A stretch of DNA of 64,000 bases from the NCBI RefSeq assembly GCF_002078015.1, contig NZ_LWBP01000190.1, positions 1 to 64,000 of the forward strand, read 5' to 3'. The position numbers and the translations under genes are program-made. Below, in pieces: positions 1-7,746 of this stretch (positions within the stretch are counted from its first letter, which is position 1; each line of letters begins with the position of its first letter). The stretch is from Niastella populi. GTDB taxonomy: Bacteria; Bacteroidota; Bacteroidia; Chitinophagales; Chitinophagaceae. The notes beneath the pieces were generated by a model, which saw nothing but the letters and a program-made list of their open reading frames with translations, searched no databases and was not told where the DNA came from.

Positions 1-789
1 CCAATTAGACCAAACTCAGATCTGTTTATGCCTTTCTTTTATTCGTTTATTGAGAGTTATCTTAACGGGAACTCAATCAGCAAGCCCATACGAAGATTTA
101 CTGACCTCTTATTATCAGCCAGTATTGTTTCATTTATATTTAATAGATTCATTTTTAAGTATGAATGGATTTCGATAACCGACTACAAAGCAGTGCTGGA
201 TTTCTTCATTCAAGGGCATTTTGTGGTACCAATAATCTTATTTACGATCGTACATATTGGACTGGCAAATATTTCTTCAATTATTTTTACAATCACTACG
301 CTGCATAAAAGCTCAAAATTTATCAAGCAAATAAAAAAATATCAGGTAAAAAAAAGGGACTATAAAGCATTTTTCAAAAAAATGAATAACAATGAAATCT
401 TCCAGCTACCTATTGAATTTAATGAAACAGTATTACTTAAAGCCTATTATCACCTGAAGAATAATATCAGTGAAGAAGAGTGGAAAAAGGCAGAGACCGA
501 AGGCAGCAAACTCAAGGAAAACCTTGAAAATGATTTTAATCTAACCGTTAAGGCAATAGTCGCCACCGCAATATACTTTTACAACTTGTCGTATTTTCGC
601 TTCGGGCTTTTCATTACTTCTCTAGCCATTCTTCTTCTAATTGCTATCGCACTTTGGTACTTTTATGTACTTGTTTACATTCTACCTTCAGTACTAAACA
701 AGATAGACACTGAATTTCAAAATTACATCGCAACCCAACAAGACCAAGGAAACATCACCCAAATAGATGAAAATTTGACTATTGAATAA
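1..789 (+). CDS. Multi-pass membrane protein of unknown function (5' end may lie outside window)
   Basis: I do not recognise a family. The frame is open from base 1, so the ATG at position 28 is only the first visible methionine and the gene may begin upstream. From that ATG (253 residues) hydrophobic segments lie at about residues 27-43, 65-90, 176-190 and 193-222. Between the second and third is a charged, Lys/Glu-rich cytoplasmic-looking stretch (about 95-175), and a short acidic tail follows the last segment. The layout is a four-helix membrane protein with a central soluble loop. The AlbA_2-type gene starts 47 bp downstream on the same strand, so the two are probably co-transcribed. The gene is AT-rich compared with the polysaccharide locus to the right, which fits acquired DNA. 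A membrane effector in a defence pair is possible, but nothing in the sequence proves it. Confidence 0.65.
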   Translation, partial: PIRPNSDLFMPFFYSFIESYLNGNSISKPIRRFTDLLLSASIVSFIFNRFIFKYEWISITDYKAVLDFFIQGHFVVPIILFTIVHIGLANISSIIFTITTLHKSSKFIKQIKKYQVKKRDYKAFFKKMNNNEIFQLPIEFNETVLLKAYYHLKNNISEEEWKKAETEGSKLKENLENDFNLTVKAIVATAIYFYNLSYFRFGLFITSLAILLLIAIALWYFYVLVYILPSVLNKIDTEFQNYIATQQDQGNITQIDENLTIE

Positions 790-836
790 TGCACGTGTTT
801 TTAAAAAGAGAAACCTAAAACTTAAAATTGCCTTTA

Positions 837-2057
837 ATGTATCTGCAAGGAAAATACATAAATGATATTACTGCTGAAGATATTGAAAACTTAATTAACA
901 ATAGCATAAAAGAGAACAAGGAACTTGATTACAAAAGGGAGCTAAATATAAATTCAGGAAAGGACACTGCTAAAAACAGAACTAATTTTATTGGTGATGT
1001 TTCCGGAATGTATAACACGGACGGAGGATGCATTATATATGGAATTGAAGAGAAAAAAGATAACGAAAATAAAAACACTGGCTATCCTAGCAAAATCGTT
1101 CCTCTAGAAATTGAAAATCAGGACAAGTTCTCTCAGTTAATCTATCAAATAATTGGTGCTCATACAGATCCTAAAATCACAACGATAGTGGCCAGGTTTA
1201 TTCTTGTTCAAGAAAAATTATTACTCATTATAGGAATACCTAAAAATTACGGATTGCCTTCAATGGTAACCCATGAAAGTACAAATAGATTTCTTAAACG
1301 AAATTCGGTTGGCAATTATCTAGTGTCAACTTCTGAATTAAATCAATTATTTTTAATGAATCAGTCGGTAAAAGAAAGGGCCAGCTCATTTAGATTAAAC
1401 CGAATAAAAGAAATTCAAGAAACTACCTTAGTGCCCATGATTGCGACTGCAGGTAGTTATTTTTTACATTTCATTCCCTATAGTTTCGCTGATGAAAAGC
1501 AATATGATTTAATTAAACTAACTGAACTTAAGAACATCTATCCTGTTCCAAAAGAAGAGTATTACAGCAGTAATTACCTGAAATTCAATTTTGATGGCTT
1601 ATACACATATCAACACGAACAAGGGCAAAATTTAGTTACTTCTCATATTCAATACTTCAGAAATGGTATTATTGAGATGTTTTCGCAAAGGTGCTGCACT
1701 ATGGCGTCCAATTTGAAAATATTCGAAGGTCATGTATTTATTACAAACTTATTACAGGGTATTCCGAATATTACAGAAGCATTTAAGAAATTACAGGTTG
1801 AACCGCCTATTATGCTTTTCGTAAGTATCTTAGATATAAAGGCTGCTTACCTACGGACAGTAGGGGATGTCACTTATCCAATTACATACAATAAGGACAA
1901 TTTATTCTTTCCTCCAATTGTATTAAATACATTTCCCTTAAGCAAAGATGAGATATTCGGTGAGTTAAAGCCAGCTTTTGATATATTATGGCAAACAGCA
2001 GGAGAAAAATCATGTCCTTCAATAGAAACCTTTATAAAGCTGCCGCCAAAAAAATGA
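837..2057 (+). CDS. AlbA_2/Schlafen-type putative nucleic-acid-binding protein
   Basis: The N-terminal ~130 residues match the AlbA_2 (Schlafen AlbA) pattern. There is a Glu/Lys pair in ELDYKREL (about residues 29-36), then a helix with FIGDVSGMYNTDGG and a strand CIIYGIEE (about 50-73), equivalent to the usual AN-x-x-GG-x-x-x-x-G signature. The following ~270 residues are not recognised and carry no predicted membrane segment. AlbA_2 domains occur in DNA/RNA-binding regulators and in many defence-associated proteins. A nuclease role as in eukaryotic Schlafens is not demonstrated for this branch. A TTG at 828 is in frame, but the ATG at 837 is the better start. The gene follows the membrane protein by 47 bp and is closed by a hairpin at 2119-2145. 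Confidence 0.7.
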   Translation: MYLQGKYINDITAEDIENLINNSIKENKELDYKRELNINSGKDTAKNRTNFIGDVSGMYNTDGGCIIYGIEEKKDNENKNTGYPSKIVPLEIENQDKFSQLIYQIIGAHTDPKITTIVARFILVQEKLLLIIGIPKNYGLPSMVTHESTNRFLKRNSVGNYLVSTSELNQLFLMNQSVKERASSFRLNRIKEIQETTLVPMIATAGSYFLHFIPYSFADEKQYDLIKLTELKNIYPVPKEEYYSSNYLKFNFDGLYTYQHEQGQNLVTSHIQYFRNGIIEMFSQRCCTMASNLKIFEGHVFITNLLQGIPNITEAFKKLQVEPPIMLFVSILDIKAAYLRTVGDVTYPITYNKDNLFFPPIVLNTFPLSKDEIFGELKPAFDILWQTAGEKSCPSIETFIKLPPKK

Positions 2058-2118
2058 TTCAACTAACACTTTGTCATTTTTCAACGTATTTTATTAACAT
2101 GCCAAATGGTGCTATATA

Positions 2119-2145
2119 AAAACCCATATATTTTATATGGGTTTT
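2119..2145. terminator. Bidirectional hairpin terminator between convergent genes
   Basis: AAAACCCATA pairs with TATGGGTTTT around a short AT loop, giving a 10 bp stem with A-run and T-run flanks that can act on both strands. It lies between the AlbA_2 gene (plus) and the HAD gene (minus), which converge here. Confidence 0.75.
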
Positions 2146-2165
2146 GAGTATTCTGGTCACTTTTC

Positions 2166-2675
2166 TCAATTTGTAAAGAACTGTTTAAAAAGAGGTATCA
2201 ATTCGTCGGGTTGCTGCGCAACAAATGACGGCGAAAGCTGAATAAGCGAATCTGGATCCGCAGCTCCCCATAAGCAGGCAACTGATTTTACTCCTGCGGC
2301 ATGTGAAGCCTGGATATCGATATTCCGATCACCCAAAGACAATGTTGATTCTGGAGTAGCCTTCATCATCGAAATTGCTTTAATGATGGGATCAGGATGC
2401 GGCTTTCGTCGCGCGGTATCGTGATAGCAGACCTTCTGATTACAGTTAATATTCCAATGGGCTATTACCCGATCGCAATACGTACCCGGACTTGAAGTCA
2501 CAATGCAAAATGGAACGGTATGAGCTTCTAAGTAGGCGATTGCCTCAATAATGCCTGGATAAAGCGAGAACTGGGGTATTAATTGATATACGTCCGACCA
2601 GTTTCTATTGGTGCGATGAGATTCTGCAATTGATGAATCAATTAACGTTTGATCCAAGTCGAACACTACTCCCAT
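2166..2675 (-). CDS. HAD-superfamily phosphatase, third gene of PRTase-DprA-HAD operon
   Basis: A small 169-residue haloacid-dehalogenase-like hydrolase. All four HAD motifs are visible: FDLDQT with nucleophile Asp6 and acid Asp8, Thr60 in IVTSS, Lys91 in RRKPHPDP, and GDRNID (Asp116/Asp120) for magnesium. The short insert between motifs I and II indicates a small helical cap, as in phosphoglycolate-phosphatase-like and nucleotide phosphatases. Its ATG overlaps the end of the DprA-like gene by 10 bp, so translation is probably coupled. A phosphomonoester product of the phosphoribosyltransferase or DprA-like protein is a reasonable substrate guess. That rests only on gene order. Confidence 0.85.
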   Translation of the reverse strand: MGVVFDLDQTLIDSSIAESHRTNRNWSDVYQLIPQFSLYPGIIEAIAYLEAHTVPFCIVTSSPGTYCDRVIAHWNINCNQKVCYHDTARRKPHPDPIIKAISMMKATPESTLSLGDRNIDIQASHAAGVKSVACLWGAADPDSLIQLSPSFVAQQPDELIPLFKQFFTN

Positions 2676-3970
2676 AAGCTGCCTTGTTTGGTATCCGTGT
2701 TGGATTGTTCTTTCTTTTCTGCATTACCATTCGCTGGGATTTCATCAACATGCTTTTTCAGCCCATGATAGATATGATCATAGAGCTGCAAATACAACTT
2801 ATTGTCCCTTTTTCCAAATCCGCTGATAAAATCCGCATAGCCAATTGAGTCTGAACGCTGCCATTTTCCGTCAATTGAACTAGCAACACTTATATCGTTC
2901 AAATATTCTTTTATGTGGGATGCTAAGACTATGGCGGTGTCGTCGAAATCACTGTAGGTTTTGCCTTCTATTACATTATGCTTGGATTCCCCGTCAGTAC
3001 AAATGACACCCAACAAGTCAGGATAGAAATATGTCGCTTCTGATCCGTTTATATCTGTAAAATCATTCAGCAGGATAAACATGAGGATATCGATCTCATC
3101 CTTTGAATAAACCGGCAAGGCCTTCCCTTCCCTGATAAGCATTTGATTGCCCTGCACCTTCGGTTCAGATCGATATTGCTGCGGGTGATTGAAGCAAACC
3201 AATTTCCGATTGTATTCGTTGCAATACTTTGCGGTATGCATTGTTCCGCCCTTCACGTCGGTTTCAACGATAACAACGGATTGCGATAACCCCGCTTGAA
3301 TCCTGTCGCGATCCACGAAATAGTTAGCCATTGGCCGTTGTTTGACAAAATATTCGGAAACCAACACTCCGTTTTTGTCTACGATCGTCTGCGCCAATTC
3401 CTTATTTTCCTTAGGATAGATATGATCGAGTCCGTGAGCCAGAACAGCCGCCGTTGTTCCATTGCCCTTAAGCGCACCCACATGGCCGGCTGTATCGCAC
3501 CCTAACGCAAGCCCTGAAACCACATTGAATTTGTGCGAGGCAAAGACTTCGCCGAGCCGTTCTCCTATCTTCACTCCGAAGTCAGTGGGCTCCCGCGTTC
3601 CGATAACTGCAATGTTCGGCTTCTCCGATAAGACCTTGATATTTCCCTTGTAGCTCAATGTAACGGGAGGATCCGGCGTTTCGCGAAGCTGCTTCGGGTA
3701 ATCTTCATCGAGGACACTAATTACGGATATGCCAGCTTTTTCTGATTGTTCCAAAATCTGTTCAGCATGGCCAAATGCAAGGTCATAAGCCGCAGCAGAA
3801 TACTCTGGGAGTCTCATGCTGCCCGCTTGTTCCTTCACATAGTCGATCAAGTCTTGCTTGTCCGAAACGCTATGATCCAAAGCCGTCAGTAATTTCAAAG
3901 CCGTTTTCCTGCCCACTTTCGGCAGTTGCAACAAGGAAACTATATTCTGCACGCTTATCTTCTGTCCCAT
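2666..3970 (-). CDS. Diverged DprA/Smf-like Rossmann (SLOG-superfamily) protein
   Basis: The 434-residue product starts with a helix-hairpin-helix (LPKVGRKTALKLL, about 16-28), then the DprA linker motif YPKQLRETPDPP (91-102). The DprA/Smf Rossmann core follows (about 118-285): IAVIGTREPTDFG, SGLALGCDTAGHVGAL (152-167), LAHGLDHIYP (177-186) and VVIVETDVKGGTMHTA (232-247). Genuine DprA loads RecA on incoming single-stranded DNA during transformation. Here the usual RNR before the AGLS motif reads RDR. The C-terminal ~145 residues are an unrecognised domain instead of the winged helix, with a low-complexity Lys/Glu/Asn tail. Family DprA is usually 360-380 residues. It is sandwiched in an operon with a ComF-like PRTase (5 bp upstream) and a HAD phosphatase (10 bp overlap), which is not the housekeeping dprA context. 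It is therefore probably a specialised paralogue in a mobile or defence module. Confidence 0.85.
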   Translation of the reverse strand: MGQKISVQNIVSLLQLPKVGRKTALKLLTALDHSVSDKQDLIDYVKEQAGSMRLPEYSAAAYDLAFGHAEQILEQSEKAGISVISVLDEDYPKQLRETPDPPVTLSYKGNIKVLSEKPNIAVIGTREPTDFGVKIGERLGEVFASHKFNVVSGLALGCDTAGHVGALKGNGTTAAVLAHGLDHIYPKENKELAQTIVDKNGVLVSEYFVKQRPMANYFVDRDRIQAGLSQSVVIVETDVKGGTMHTAKYCNEYNRKLVCFNHPQQYRSEPKVQGNQMLIREGKALPVYSKDEIDILMFILLNDFTDINGSEATYFYPDLLGVICTDGESKHNVIEGKTYSDFDDTAIVLASHIKEYLNDISVASSIDGKWQRSDSIGYADFISGFGKRDNKLYLQLYDHIYHGLKKHVDEIPANGNAEKKEQSNTDTKQGSLWE

Positions 3971-3975
3971 GCTAT

Positions 3976-4626
3976 CTAGTTAAAGTGACTCAAATTTATC
4001 GATTCATTCAATGCGCCATCGTATTCCGTTTTCCCTAGGCAGAAAAAATAATAGCGACCGTGGGGCCATTGCTGTTTTAACACCTCCAATATAGCAGAAA
4101 TGGTTGTATTGCTTGTAGTTACGTCATCAAGGATCAAGACATTCTTATTGTTCAGATCCTTTTCCTGATTTGCTACAAAATAAACATTTTCCATCATTTG
4201 CCTCCGCTCATCGCGCGTTCTTATGGTGTGCATCGGTGGCGTTTCCCTATGTTTGGCAAGAATCGTTGGCGAGTATTCACAGTTTAGCTGCTTCGCCAAT
4301 ACTGTTCCCAGTTTGTCCAACGCTTTTTGGCCTGACGGCCGCAGTTCCCTGCTGCCGAGCGCCCTGATAATGCAATCAAAGTTGATATCGGTTCCTGACA
4401 ATACGGTTGAAGCCCAGTTGCACCATTTATGAACCCATTGCTGGTTATTATCCTTGAATTGTATTACATAATAGGGCAACGTTCCATTCGTCTGCCGTTC
4501 CGCCGAAACGTAATAACACAGATGCCAGGCGCCATGCAGTCCGAGGGTTCTATACTTCCATTCGGTTAACAAGCTAATCATTAGATATTTTTTAAGGGGT
4601 GAGAAAATGGCGTTCCCTATACGCAA
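3976..4626 (-). CDS. ComF-like phosphoribosyltransferase, first gene of PRTase-DprA-HAD operon
   Basis: The C-terminal half is a type I phosphoribosyltransferase. The PRPP-binding loop reads LILDDVTTSNTT (about residues 164-175), preceded by a strand and followed by a helix. The segment RALGSRELRPSGQKALDKLG and later TRDERRQMMENVYFV resemble the ComFC arrangement (arginine-rich block, LA helix, ERxxN...F). The N-terminal ~80 residues are Trp-rich and unrecognised, without the four-cysteine zinc finger of full ComF. The longest frame begins at TTG 4626. An in-frame ATG at 4581 (MISLLTEWKYR) is an equally good start and would give 201 residues. It lies 5 bp before the DprA-like gene. ComFC and DprA are functional partners in natural transformation, but the HAD gene and the island setting suggest a different job. 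Confidence 0.8.
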   Translation of the reverse strand: MRIGNAIFSPLKKYLMISLLTEWKYRTLGLHGAWHLCYYVSAERQTNGTLPYYVIQFKDNNQQWVHKWCNWASTVLSGTDINFDCIIRALGSRELRPSGQKALDKLGTVLAKQLNCEYSPTILAKHRETPPMHTIRTRDERRQMMENVYFVANQEKDLNNKNVLILDDVTTSNTTISAILEVLKQQWPHGRYYFFCLGKTEYDGALNESINLSHFN

Positions 4627-4661
4627 AACACCGCAGGCAATAAAAATTACTACTCCGAGAT

Positions 4662-4683
4662 AAAAAAACCGTAAAAAATACGG
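4662..4683 (-). terminator. Hairpin terminator after XRE gene
   Basis: Read on the minus strand, CCGTA and TACGG form a short stem around a T-rich loop, followed at once by a run of seven T. It sits between the XRE gene end and the PRTase start and separates the regulator transcript from the three-gene operon. Confidence 0.5.
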
Positions 4684-4717
4684 GTATGCAGCGAGTATAG
4701 GCTATCCGTTAGGAGTC

Positions 4718-5092
4718 CTATGCCGTCACCAGCACTGGTTCCAGCTTTTCCAAAATACGCCGCCTTGGTTTCGTCTTATTGCCTTCGCAGTCGATAAGGG
4801 TTCCGTGATCGATCCCCAGGCGCCTCGCCAATGCGCTTTGGGTCAAGCCGTGCATATACCGGTATTTCTTGATTTTGCCGCCAAGTGTACTGGCATTGAT
4901 CTCCCACGGGAAAAAGCCTAAAAACTCGATAATCTTCGGATAGTACTTGATTTGCGGTTCGTGCCCTGTCATCTCCCAGTTGGTAATGGTTTGTTCGGTG
5001 GTGCCGATACGCTGGGCAACGTCCTTCTGCAGCAGTCCGAGCTTCAGGCGGCGGGCGCGCAAGTGATAGCCGAGCGTATCCGGATCAGGCAT
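4718..5092 (-). CDS. Double helix-turn-helix XRE-family regulator
   Basis: The 124-residue product carries two tandem XRE-like HTH segments: about residues 6-42 (HLRARRLKLGLLQKDVAQRI then TTEQTITNWE) and 70-105 (LGGKIKKYRYMHGLTQSALA then RRLGIDHGTLIDCEG). This small two-HTH architecture is common in accessory regions. The frame remains open to a TTG at 5146, but those extra 18 residues read into the junction with the yifB remnant, so the ATG at 5092 is preferred. It is transcribed towards the PRTase-DprA-HAD operon from the island edge and is the natural candidate for its regulator. No operator was identified. Confidence 0.75.
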   Translation of the reverse strand: MPDPDTLGYHLRARRLKLGLLQKDVAQRIGTTEQTITNWEMTGHEPQIKYYPKIIEFLGFFPWEINASTLGGKIKKYRYMHGLTQSALARRLGIDHGTLIDCEGNKTKPRRRILEKLEPVLVTA

Positions 5093-5152
5093 AACGCTGA
5101 CATTCAGGGGCTTCTCCACGCTCCGTTCGAGCCGGGAAAAAGGCAACGCATC

Positions 5153-5640
5153 AATGCCCCTGCGGCTTCTATAATCATCCCGAAAAAGAGTGCACCTGTG
5201 CGCCGGGCGCCGTTCACAAATACCTGAACAAAATATCGGGGCCGCTGCTCGATCGTATAGACCTGCATGTTGAAGTTACGCCGGTTCCATTTAGTGATCT
5301 GAGTATGCAAAAGAATGCGGAATCTTCAGAAGAAATCCGTATTAGAGTTATCAATGCCCGTGATCTGCAAACCCAGCGGTATAAAAACAATGCAGGCGTT
5401 TATTGCAATGCGCAAATGAGTAGTAAGCTGTTAAAACAAGTATGTGTGCTTGATATGGCGGGACAAACTTTATTAAAAACGGCTATGCACAAGCTCAATT
5501 TATCGGCCCGTGCTTATGACCGTATATTGAAGGTAAGCCGCACAATTGCCGATTTGGCTGCAAGTGAAACCATTTTACCGGAACATGTGGCGGAAGCTAT
5601 AACGTACAGGAATCTTGACAGAGATGGTTGGGGAGCGTGA
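5153..5640 (+). pseudogene. yifB: 3' remnant of yifB/comM (Mg-chelatase-like AAA+ protein)
   Basis: Plus-strand translation gives CPCGFYNHPEKECTCAPG at 5155-5208, followed by a conserved KISGPLLDRIDLHVEV segment (about 5227-5274). These are the characteristic cysteine motif and downstream arginine motif of YifB/ComM. The frame runs on to the C-terminal Mg_chelatase_C domain (ARAYDRILKVSRTIADLA, HVAEAITYRNLDRDGW) and a normal stop at 5640. Upstream of about 5150 homology stops abruptly: HQ replaces the expected MNP before CPCG, and preceding codons match nothing in the family. The N-terminal ~340 residues, including the Lon-like domain and Walker A, are missing here. The first ATG in the remnant (5305) would give 111 residues with no function. 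ComM is a branch-migration helicase used in natural transformation. The accessory genes to the left have either split or deleted it. Confidence 0.85.
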
Positions 5641-5705
5641 GCGGTTCGGTTAAGATCTGGGGCAAAGAATAGAAATGGGCAGGCAATCGTTGCGAACTAT
5701 TTAAA

Positions 5706-6464
5706 TTAGTTCTGTATCGTTTTATAAGAAGGTGTGTTCCACTCTTCTGCAGGTGTGTTCTGTTGCGTTTTTCCTTTAAAGATCCGGTTGAAAACTTCAC
5801 CTATGATCTGGGCGCCGGTCTTACGTACAATGCGAATATCTAACCAGAAGTTTGCATTACGAACATAAAAAGCATCGAACTGGTAGCGATGAAAAATGCT
5901 TTCAAAATCCTTTGTAGGACCGCGATAGCCTTTGATCTGTGCCAACCCTGTGATACCGGGTTTTACGAGGTTTCTGAATTTATATCCATTAACCGCATTG
6001 GCGAATTTATTACAGTCGGCATTCATATGTGGGCGGGGGCCTACAATGCTCATTTGTCCCATTAACACATTAAAGAACTGAGGGAATTCATCCAAACCGG
6101 TAACACGCAGGAACATACCGACCCTTGTGATGCGGGGATCATTATCAGTGGCCTGGCGAACATCTGCATCCCTATTAATGTACATAGTACGCAGCTTATA
6201 ACACCAGAACACACGGCCAAGGAACCCTACCCGTTTCTGTTTGAAGAATACCGGTCCTCTTGAGTCAAGTTTTATCAGAACCATTAAGATGGGGAGTAAC
6301 CATGATAACACCAGTGTAATGATCATTAACGAGGTCACAATATCAAAACACCGCTTTGCAACGAAGTATCCCTGCTTCCGCTCTAAATAGAGCCTGAGTG
6401 AAGGTGGATGCTCGGTAAAAAACTTTACTCTCTTATAAACTAAATTTTCAGGTTGCTCGATCAT
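5706..6464 (-). CDS. Priming sugar-phosphate transferase (bacterial sugar transferase, WcaJ/WbaP C-domain type)
   Basis: A monotopic phosphoglycosyl transferase that moves a sugar-1-phosphate from a nucleotide sugar to undecaprenyl phosphate, the first step of capsule or O-antigen repeat assembly. The 252-residue protein has one hydrophobic re-entrant helix (about 41-65), the family motif SRGPVFFKQKRVG (68-80), KLRTM (90-94), the catalytic Asp-Glu dyad in GLDEFPQFFN (D125/E126) and SIVGPRPH (139-146). The C-terminus holds KPGITGLAQI (168-177). It lacks the N-terminal four-helix domain of full WbaP, as is usual for short forms. It faces away from the rest of the cluster across a 460 bp intergenic region. 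The sugar cannot be read from sequence. Confidence 0.9.
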   Translation of the reverse strand: MIEQPENLVYKRVKFFTEHPPSLRLYLERKQGYFVAKRCFDIVTSLMIITLVLSWLLPILMVLIKLDSRGPVFFKQKRVGFLGRVFWCYKLRTMYINRDADVRQATDNDPRITRVGMFLRVTGLDEFPQFFNVLMGQMSIVGPRPHMNADCNKFANAVNGYKFRNLVKPGITGLAQIKGYRGPTKDFESIFHRYQFDAFYVRNANFWLDIRIVRKTGAQIIGEVFNRIFKGKTQQNTPAEEWNTPSYKTIQN

Positions 6465-6637
6465 AGCACAGGTATTTGGTTCTTCCAGGATTTCGTAAAC
6501 GAATTTAATGCCGTATTAGTACTTACGCTCTGTATTTACTACATTTTAACATCTAAAACATCAAAATCGCCTAAACCCTTAATAACTAAAAGTTAAAACA
6601 AATGTTTAAAAATTATAAAACCCATCCATTGACAATG

Positions 6638-6645
6638 CAAACTTA
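6638..6645 (-). promoter_or_regulatory. Putative Bacteroidota -7 element for the priming transferase
   Basis: Reads TAAGTTTG on the minus strand, an exact TAnnTTTG match. It would give a leader of roughly 170 nt before the ATG at 6464. No clear -33 TTTG at the standard distance, so the call is tentative. Confidence 0.35.
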
Positions 6646-6856
6646 AGAAAGGTTGCACCAAAAAAGGTTTAAAATAATTTTCACTTTTTAGTAAACATTT
6701 GACATTCACGAATTTTGTTCAAATCAACGCGCTTATGGGCTAAAACAGCACGGTTATTGCCACTTTAAACACTTTATTATTTTTTACAGTGGGGCTGAAG
6801 CAACGTTTTAAGGCATTTTTGCACTCCATTAAGACCTAAATGTTTGAAAATGCATT

Positions 6857-6864
6857 TACATTTG
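6857..6864 (+). promoter_or_regulatory. Putative Bacteroidota -7 element for the glycosyltransferase operon
   Basis: TACATTTG matches the TAnnTTTG consensus exactly and would give a leader of about 55 nt to the ATG at 6925. No well-spaced -33 motif is obvious. Confidence 0.4.
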
Positions 6865-6924
6865 CACTATTATTTAAAAACCACTGTTTTAAAGGTTAGA
6901 TTTCGCATAACCGTTAATTAGAAA

Positions 6925-7746
6925 ATGAGATCTTATCCCCCAACAATTGATTTTTATCTTTTAATACCCTTCTACAATAACTTACCGGGGCTGCTTCATT
7001 CGCTTAAAAGCGTTCACTATGATGCAGATAAATATACAGTGGTAATTGTTGATGATGGTAGCAGACAGCCTGTTGGCCTGGAAGATATATACAGGGAAAT
7101 TTCACGCGATATTTCTGTTGAAATAATACAATTGCCTTGTAATAAAGGCATTACAGTTGCATTAAACTCCGGCCTGGAGTGGATAAAAAAGCAAAACAAT
7201 GCAGCTTTTATTGCCCGGATCGATTGCGGCGATACCTGTTCGGACGACCGGTTCTATAAACAGGTAGCATTTTTAAAAGCGCACCCGTCGGTCGGCCTGG
7301 TAGGCAGTTGGTGCATTTTTAAAGATCATGTTTCAAATGTGGCTTACCGGTATATTACTCCTACCCGGCATAAAAAGATAAAAAGGGGTATGCATTTTAG
7401 AAATATTTTCATCCATCCTACCGTAATGTGGCGGTGCGATGCGATGAAAGACAATAAGCTTTATCCTGACACCTACCCCGATGCAGAAGACTACGGCTTT
7501 TTTTACCGCTTCTTGCAACAGGGCGAAACGGCTATCATTCCCGAATATCTGGTTACATGCGAAATAAACCACAAAGGTATTTCGCTGACTTCCAGGAGGA
7601 AACAGCTTAAAAGTCGTATTAAAGTGGTGCAGGAATACGGAAGAAACAGGGTTTTACGTTATTTGGGAGTTGTTAAGTTGAGATTGTTGCTTATTATACC
7701 ATATAATATCATTTTTTCCATAAAAAAGTCATTATACGGTGTATAA
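6925..7746 (+). CDS. Family 2 glycosyltransferase
   Basis: A 273-residue GT-A fold enzyme. The N-terminal strand YLLIPFYNN is followed by VVIVDDGS (Asp43/Asp44, nucleotide binding), NKGITVALNSGL (73-84) and the metal-binding DXD-like ARIDCGDTC (98-105). Further on are ALRs typical of GT2: PTVMWRCDAM and YPDAEDYGFFYR, the latter supplying the acidic acceptor-side ED motif. The C-terminal ~40 residues are basic and hydrophobic and could associate with the inner membrane. It is the first plus-strand gene of the polysaccharide cluster. Donor and acceptor are unknown. Confidence 0.88.
   Translation: MRSYPPTIDFYLLIPFYNNLPGLLHSLKSVHYDADKYTVVIVDDGSRQPVGLEDIYREISRDISVEIIQLPCNKGITVALNSGLEWIKKQNNAAFIARIDCGDTCSDDRFYKQVAFLKAHPSVGLVGSWCIFKDHVSNVAYRYITPTRHKKIKRGMHFRNIFIHPTVMWRCDAMKDNKLYPDTYPDAEDYGFFYRFLQQGETAIIPEYLVTCEINHKGISLTSRRKQLKSRIKVVQEYGRNRVLRYLGVVKLRLLLIIPYNIIFSIKKSLYGV

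What the first reader, a model, noticed from the sequence alone, without database searches (positions are those of the whole stretch)
2166..4626. Compact PRTase / DprA-like / HAD operon: candidate uncharacterised nucleotide-centred system
Seen: three minus-strand genes (ComF-like phosphoribosyltransferase, diverged DprA-like Rossmann protein with a novel C-terminal domain replacing the winged helix, HAD phosphatase) are packed with 5 bp spacing and a 10 bp overlap. A double-HTH regulator lies upstream. Known: DprA belongs to the SLOG superfamily, which recurs in nucleotide-signalling conflict systems. PRTase and HAD enzymes make and dephosphorylate nucleotide-like metabolites. ComFC and DprA are partners in transformation. 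Inference: the trio may make, sense or hydrolyse a nucleoside-type signal or process incoming DNA as a defence module. It is unlikely to be the housekeeping DprA.
Basis: partly seen in the sequence, partly recalled or inferred. Interest (0 to 1): 0.78.

Follow-up and report, generated by a model that had tools for sequence, protein, structure and literature searches.

The report
Three-gene ShosTA-type phage-defence toxin–antitoxin operon
Three packed bacterial genes turn out to be a version of a known anti-phage toxin–antitoxin system (ShosTA) in which the phosphatase part of the toxin is a gene of its own, apparently riding on a mobile island inserted into a competence gene.

Summary
The operon is real and at the stated coordinates, but it is not an uncharacterised signalling system: it is ShosTA-type. 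PADLOC names ShosA and ShosT, and the top three PDB matches of the window PRTase model are ShosT. The DprA-like protein falls outside the clade of 48 housekeeping DprAs, and the genome has its own dprA elsewhere.

The variant feature is the third gene. A HAD phosphatase, fused to the PRTase in known ShosT-like toxins, is here a separate, active-site-intact gene overlapping the antitoxin gene. In a HAD-seeded scan, 46 of 51 close HAD loci carry both partners against 1 of 25 remote ones, in several bacterial phyla and archaea. The scan pattern requires an intact HAD motif I, so degenerate forms, such as E. coli P2-phage ShosT, are invisible to it.

A split comM with a serine-recombinase gene at the break indicates an island. 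Of 60 ShosA tails 36 end in a clamp-like motif by a post hoc pattern, 12 of 59 by the published consensus.

The window PRTase lacks the PRPP-loop glycine that 52 of 55 keep, so this copy may be altered. HAD function remains open.

The parts
3976..4626 (-). ShosT-type phosphoribosyltransferase (toxin catalytic subunit); probable true start ATG at 4581
   Evidence: PADLOC ShosT E 3e-10, PsyrT 8e-8; AF2 model, top three Foldseek PDB matches are ShosT 8zvb/8zvc/8zvd at 12% identity; D167, D168, T171 invariant in 28 sequences; loop Gly is Asn here
2666..3970 (-). ShosA-type DprA-like antitoxin, 434 aa
   Evidence: Pfam DNA_processg_A 5.5e-63; PADLOC ShosA 1.5e-76; outside the clade of 48 housekeeping DprAs, support 1.0; Foldseek rank 1 an ordinary DprA (3maj), rank 2 ShosA 8zva
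3119..3742 (-). DprA Rossmann (SLOG-type) core, residues 77-284, with family signature D222, Q225, H245
   Evidence: for the extent; for the signature residues
2669..3091 (-). unconserved C-terminal extension, residues 294-434, no winged helix
2672..2686 (-). C-terminal QGSLW, sliding-clamp-motif-like by my own loose and strict patterns, not by the published revised consensus
2166..2675 (-). HAD phosphatase, separate third subunit; catalytic D6, D8, T60, K91, D116, D120 intact
   Evidence: Pfam HAD_2 5.4e-21; these residues invariant in the six-sequence alignment A2; 59-sequence motif table
4718..5146 (-). double Cro/C1 HTH gene (probable ATG at 5092, my reading); possible regulator, not conserved with the system
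5155..5640 (+). 3' part of comM (Mg-chelatase-like AAA) at the inferred island edge; junction at 5154/5155

Best explanation
A ShosTA-type anti-phage toxin-antitoxin operon carried on a serine-recombinase island in comM. The PRTase (ShosT) is the toxin. It uses PRPP and disturbs purine nucleotide pools and DNA integrity when released (taken from work on relatives; inferred here). The DprA-like ShosA is the DNA-bound antitoxin that restrains the toxin or repairs its damage (inferred from relatives). The separate HAD phosphatase is the other half of the toxin activity: it removes pyrophosphate or the 5'-phosphate of the PRTase product and so drives the reaction (inferred). Shown here: the architecture, family membership, intact HAD active site, distribution, and a comM gene split at the operon's side. 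Not shown: toxicity, phage defence, substrates, and whether this copy is active.
For: PADLOC ShosA and ShosT hits. Predicted folds: PRTase ranks 1-3 are ShosT, rank 4 ComF; DprA-like rank 2 is ShosA after an ordinary DprA. Tree and signature residues. A HAD-PRTase protein next to DprA in Pf phage PfAC02a, annotated ShosT/ShosA by its depositors, and in E. coli and Klebsiella plasmids. Separate trio in 42 and fused form in 4 of 51 non-seed close HAD loci. HAD residues intact. The HAD resembles phosphoglycolate phosphatase, PpaX pyrophosphatase (3.9e-19) and BT2121 diphosphatase (1.2e-9) models, all far below their curated cut-offs. Literature passages: PRTase domain needed for RqlH toxicity but not sufficient alone, and RqlI likely binds it (PMC4670107); ShosT as PRTase and pyrophosphatase, ShosA DNA binding (review PMC12593503); a DprA+PRTase pair protects against T7 and lambda (PMC9122126).
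Against: The PADLOC ShosA profile also hits the housekeeping DprA (9e-65), so that hit alone does not discriminate. The window PRTase is remote from E. coli ShosT (12% identity, TMq 0.51-0.56). The PRPP-loop Gly is Asn here and Arg in the sister L138, against Gly in 52 of 55, so activity may be altered or lost. The P2-phage ShosT, the form with solved structures, has a degenerate HAD, so HAD catalysis is not needed everywhere; and the HAD scan could not see degenerate forms (its pattern demands motif I). ShosA-like genes without detected partners occur in G184, G373, G392 and G515.
Confidence: 0.6

Rival explanations
1. Same ShosTA membership, but the HAD is a second antitoxin or reset enzyme: it dephosphorylates or clears the PRTase product so that leaky toxin does no harm.
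For: In the window the HAD gene overlaps the antitoxin gene, not the toxin gene. In 44 of 46 separate-trio loci the HAD directly follows DprA on the same strand.
Against: Where domains are fused, the HAD is fused to the PRTase (toxin), not to DprA: 5 of 81 loci, PfAC02a and the E. coli plasmid frame.
Confidence: 0.25
2. A decayed or repurposed ShosTA relative: this subclade has lost canonical PRPP use and is retained as island cargo with another role, or is inactive.
For: PRPP-loop glycine missing in window (N) and L138 (R); unique DprA tail.
Against: All three frames are intact, window and L138 proteins are 48% (PRTase) and 49% (HAD) identical, and catalytic DD and HAD residues are kept.
Confidence: 0.15
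3. A competence/transformation module (ComFC-like PRTase plus DprA) processing incoming DNA.
For: ComF is the first non-ShosT structural match; comM is interrupted beside the operon.
Against: A separate housekeeping dprA exists; the DprA-like protein lies outside the housekeeping clade; no winged helix; no ShosA-level match in 9 other congeners, one of them only 61% complete and one (G677) with an unclassified second DprA-like frame at 2.9e-22.
Confidence: 0.04
4. A nucleoside-signal defence system in which the PRTase makes, the SLOG-like protein senses and the HAD hydrolyses a signal.
For: Foldseek finds LOG and ThsA SLOG structures at low rank; Ter-type PRTase+HAD systems are proposed to make nucleotide signals (PMC7824862 passage).
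Against: None of the window's three other neighbours tested (HTH, AlbA, membrane protein) recurs beside the trios, so no shared effector was seen, though other shared neighbours were not sought; relatives act as toxin-antitoxin (passages).
Confidence: 0.07

Closest known systems
ShosTA of E. coli P2-like phage / APEC O1 (PDB 8zvb-d, 9w2p, 9w2q, 8zva, 9vzo)
   Same: PRTase toxin and DprA-like antitoxin as neighbours; both predicted folds match
   Different: Window has HAD as a separate, intact gene after the antitoxin; the P2-phage ShosT is one protein whose HAD has Ser for the nucleophile Asp
ShosTA of Pseudomonas phage PfAC02a (OR790968)
   Same: Intact HAD plus PRTase plus ShosA
   Different: HAD and PRTase fused, with a C-terminal zinc ribbon; order toxin then antitoxin
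PsyrTA / RqlHI
   Same: PRTase toxin restrained by a DprA homologue (PMC4670107 passages); PsyrT hit 8e-8
   Different: Toxin PRTase fused to a RecQ-like helicase; window has none
HAD-PRTase-helicase frames on E. coli and Klebsiella plasmids (L033)
   Same: DprA next to HAD and PRTase stretches; PRTase 35% identical
   Different: HAD, PRTase, DUF559 and DEAD helicase in one 1110-aa frame
Housekeeping DprA
   Same: DprA core
   Different: The 48 housekeeping copies have N222, mostly V/I225 and I245; window has D, Q, H; no winged helix in the window

Membership tests
ShosTA | PRTase matching ShosT | tested here: met
   PADLOC 3e-10; Foldseek PDB ranks 1-3 are ShosT, 12% identity
ShosTA | Adjacent DprA-like protein distinct from housekeeping DprA | tested here: met
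   5 bp gap; 48 of 48 housekeeping DprAs in one clade without it, support 1.0; the 48 were what was left after I set aside nine ShosA-like rows and a fragment
ShosTA | PRPP-binding DD..T.G loop | tested here: inconclusive
   DD..T kept, Gly replaced by Asn; Gly in 52 of 55
ShosTA | HAD domain with the PRTase | tested here: met
   Present as a separate gene rather than a fusion
ShosTA | Toxin neutralised by antitoxin; phage protection | not testable with these tools
   needs experiment
PsyrTA / RqlHI | RecQ-like helicase fused to the PRTase | tested here: not met
   PRTase is 201-216 aa with no helicase match
Housekeeping DprA | C-terminal winged helix and position in the housekeeping clade | tested here: not met
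ComFC-DprA transformation | Sole or core dprA of the species | tested here: not met
   second dprA on C45; no ShosA-level match in 9 other congeners, with the caveats given
Retron PRTase effector | Reverse transcriptase and msr/msd RNA nearby | tested here: inconclusive
   no Rfam match at gathering score in window 1-7000; no reverse transcriptase among the seven proteins scanned; the rest of the window was not scanned

The most novel reading that the evidence does not exclude
A widespread form of ShosTA is a three-protein, replication-fork-tethered system: ShosA docks on the sliding clamp through a C-terminal QxxL(x)F tail, and the catalytic HAD is an essential partner of the PRTase. This would be a layer missing from the E. 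coli model, whose HAD is degenerate.
Probability: 0.22. Interest if true: 0.72.

Novelty: new variant of a known kind. Interest (0 to 1): 0.48.

Why it matters
The solved ShosT structures are of a P2-phage E. coli protein whose HAD domain has lost its nucleophile. If many ShosTA systems carry a separate active HAD, as the scan suggests for at least ten groups of organisms, the chemistry of the toxin may be only half described, and HAD phosphatases, whose role in defence is called unknown (PMC13092281 passage), gain a testable home. A clamp-like tail on ShosA would suggest how an antitoxin watches DNA replication. Serine-recombinase islands that split comM beside such operons, in the window genome and in G622, link defence islands to a competence gene.

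Tried and rejected
Novel C-terminal domain in the DprA-like protein: rejected as a conserved feature.

Housekeeping or competence DprA: rejected.

PRTase homology search across the phylum: 97 of 395 genomes matched, best non-self E 1.4e-10. Of the 29 non-self loci fetched (short flanks), only L017 also had a DprA match. The rest are probably ComF-like, so this search was not used for counting.

PADLOC scan of nearest neighbours: 83 trio neighbours matched 134 models at 1e-10, against 11 models for 82 control neighbours. One protein can hit many models and the number of matching proteins is not shown, so this is suggestive only.

HAD conservation: the scan pattern itself demands both motif-I aspartates, so their conservation in the fetched loci is built in. 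K91, D116 and D120 are outside the pattern. The pattern also hides degenerate HADs, so I cannot say how common they are. After this check I lowered the novel-case probability from 0.25 to 0.22 and the best-explanation confidence from 0.62 to 0.60.

Clamp motif: my loose and strict patterns were chosen after looking at the tails. Loose 36 of 60 against shuffle mean 1.6 (max 7); strict 29 of 60 against 0.3 (max 3). The published revised consensus gives 12 of 59 against 0.4 (max 4), and loose matches occur in 16 of 1255 body 14-mers. The window's QGSLW fits my patterns but not the revised consensus. Housekeeping DprAs carry the strict form in the linker in 19 of 48 and the loose form at the C-terminus in 0 of 48, so the motif is not unique to ShosA. 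PRTase C-termini gave 0 of 55, but several of these are cut domain pieces.

Promoter and terminator scan near the shuffled expectation; repeats uninformative; Rfam none.

Literature: ten searches, several with capped lists; two searches were flooded by unrelated words. In the listings and passages seen, none described the three-gene form with a separate HAD or a DprA/ShosA clamp motif. Pu et al. 2025 and Kimelman et al. 2012 are not held, so I cannot say that they do not.
Full report
What is there. One search confirms three minus-strand genes: PRTase 3976-4626, DprA-like 2666-3970, HAD 2166-2675, with 5 bp between the first two and a 10 bp overlap between the last two. Pfam gives DNA_processg_A (5.5e-63) and HAD_2 (5.4e-21); the PRTase matches Pribosyltran only below its cut-off (7.3e-5). 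The PRTase start is probably ATG 4581.

What it is. PADLOC names the DprA-like protein ShosA (1.5e-76) and the PRTase ShosT (3e-10). The ShosA profile also hits the genome's housekeeping DprA on contig C45 (9e-65), so I tested further. In a tree of 116 DprA sequences I took as housekeeping the 48 left from the 58 nearest DprA-like matches in Bacteroidota genomes (own copy included), after dropping one fragment and setting aside nine that fell with the ShosA-type proteins: five with PRTase and HAD beside them, four without. All 48 form one clade, support 1.0; the window protein is outside it, paired with Chitinophaga sp. CF418 (L138, 0.988). The deeper node joining the window with the Pf-phage ShosA has only 0.56 support. 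Three residues separate the 59 ShosA-type from the 48: D222 (58 of 59; N in 48 of 48), Q225 (59 of 59; V, I or A in the 48), H245 (58 of 59; I, Q or L in the 48). AlphaFold models have confident cores. For the DprA-like model Foldseek ranks an ordinary DprA (3maj) first and ShosA 8zva second, so the fold alone does not discriminate. For the PRTase, ranks one to three are ShosT 8zvb, 8zvc and 8zvd, and rank four is ComF.

The HAD gene. In Pseudomonas phage PfAC02a the depositors name a 478-aa HAD/PRTase protein ShosT and its neighbour ShosA. On E. coli and Klebsiella plasmids DprA precedes a frame with HAD and PRTase stretches, in the E. coli record continuing into a helicase. So the HAD belongs with the ShosT toxin and is here a gene of its own. 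I scanned genome contigs (one genome for each of 84,980 species) with a HAD alignment. The tool used one peptide pattern, FD[LF]D[QL][TV]L[IV]D, and kept 80 of 82 confirmed relatives; viral contigs gave 1 more. Then I looked for DprA and PRTase anywhere in each locus of up to about 10 kb. Of 81 loci, 46 have separate PRTase, DprA and HAD, 5 a HAD-PRTase fusion plus DprA, 4 DprA+HAD only, 1 PRTase+HAD only, 25 neither. Four loci repeat alignment seeds. Without them, 48 of 51 loci in rows L137-L191 have DprA and 46 of 51 both partners; in rows L192-L216, 2 of 25 have DprA and 1 of 25 both. In some loci the counted PRTase lies up to a few kb away. The window's order is found in 28 of the 46.

HAD active site. 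Over 59 HADs, D6, D8 and D120 together are kept in 55; the exceptions are three partial frames and the E. coli P2-phage ShosT, whose nucleophile Asp is Ser. D116 is kept in 57, K91 in 59. The scan pattern demands D6 and D8, so only D116, D120 and K91 are independent evidence, and degenerate HADs could not be found by it. The P2-phage ShosA is identical over residues 22-349 to PDB 9vzo, and its ShosT matches 8zvb over its full length at 7e-294.

Against uniformity: ShosA-like genes without detected partners occur in G184, G373, G392 and G515 (the last with a stop inside the match), and G216 ends at a contig edge; trios were found in G640, G415, G270 and G215 and a divergent form in G622.

Where it sits. 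The genome's comM is in two pieces: 5' part on C13, 3' part at window 5155-5640. Intact comM of congener G590 aligns to C13 up to one base and to the window from the base before it, a 2-bp overlap (TG), and stays colinear beyond comM. A large serine recombinase gene abuts the C13 junction. Of 10 genomes of the genus (self included) 9 gave a match: 7 have an intact 517-aa frame; this genome and G677 are interrupted at the same site, and G677 has a recombinase-like frame there (judged by similarity, not scanned). The contigs are not joined, so one island is an inference. In 9 other congeners no match reached ShosA level (best 3e-39, as for housekeeping DprA); G676 is only 61% complete, and G677 has a second DprA-like frame at 2.9e-22 that I did not classify. 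In the single-contig genome G622, comM is split elsewhere by another serine-recombinase island with a C5 methylase, HindVP endonuclease, OLD-like ATPase and a ShosA/HAD/PRTase set. comM was not usual beside trios: 1 of 81 loci had a comM stretch, at its edge. DprA-like matches at 1e-30 are on 44 plasmid records, not classified further. That islands elsewhere use comM (AbaR in Acinetobacter) is recalled, not looked up.

How it most likely works. For RqlHI, passages say that the PRTase domain is needed for toxicity, that changes in its PRPP pocket remove most of it, that the PRTase domain alone is not enough, and that RqlI likely binds this domain (PMC4670107). For ShosTA, a review passage says ShosT is a PRTase and pyrophosphatase that disturbs purine pools and DNA, that ShosA binds DNA and counters it, and that T7 Gp0.7 triggers it (PMC12593503; the original is not held). 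A DprA+PRTase pair protects against T7 and lambda (PMC9122126, passage). By inference the window operon does the same, with the HAD supplying (pyro)phosphatase activity. Its nearest named models include pyrophosphatases, all well below cut-off. The HAD step is my inference, and the degenerate HAD of the P2-phage ShosT speaks against its being universal.

Doubts about this copy. The PRPP-loop glycine present in 52 of 55 PRTases is Asn here and Arg in L138. The 142-residue DprA tail is unlike the other tails seen, has no convincing homologue in the searches made and is modelled poorly.

A lead. ShosA tails, otherwise unalike, often end in QxxL(x)F/W: 36 of 60 by a loose pattern chosen after seeing them, against a shuffle mean of 1.6 and maximum of 7; 12 of 59 against 0.4 (maximum 4) by the revised clamp-binding consensus quoted in PMC13254535 (passages). 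At one representative per 55% identity, 19 of 34 loose and 8 of 34 revised. Loose matches in the protein bodies: 16 of 1255 14-mers. Housekeeping DprAs have the strict form in the linker in 19 of 48. The window's QGSLW fits my patterns, not the revised consensus. A search for DprA with sliding-clamp terms (20 of 230 papers listed) and passages of one review showed no report of DprA-clamp binding.

Verdict. A known kind, ShosTA, in a widespread three-gene variant. The separate active HAD and the clamp-like tail are worth testing.

Noticed in passing
window 5154/5155 with G000:C13:21753: comM is interrupted with a 2-bp overlap and a serine recombinase gene at the break; of 9 matched genomes of the genus 7 have it intact and G677 is interrupted at the same site.
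   Followed up: yes
L136 (G622:C1:549000-563500): A different serine-recombinase island inside comM holds a C5 methylase, HindVP endonuclease, OLD-like ATPase and a divergent ShosA / HAD-PRTase set.
   Followed up: partly
L143, L147, L152, L153: Prevotella-type loci carry two or three PRTase genes before ShosA and HAD.
   Followed up: no
L160:4938-7790: A 951-aa frame with HAD, 19 MORN stretches and PRTase, next to DprA: a toxin fusion with a repeat spacer.
   Followed up: partly
L101:5223-6245, L106:5725-6705, L146:5846-6664: Some PRTases of the trio begin with a hydrophobic, membrane-like segment (read by eye).
   Followed up: no
window 828-2057 and 28-789: Schlafen AlbA_2-domain protein and a membrane-like protein of low G+C (0.33) next to the operon at the contig end, possibly another cargo module.
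   Followed up: no
housekeeping DprA of Bacteroidota, e.g. L105: QxxLF motif in the linker between the Rossmann core and the winged helix in 19 of 48 housekeeping DprAs, resembling a clamp-binding motif.
   Followed up: partly
L130 (G515:C6): comM C-terminal frame is only 233 aa, so comM may be interrupted there too.
   Followed up: no
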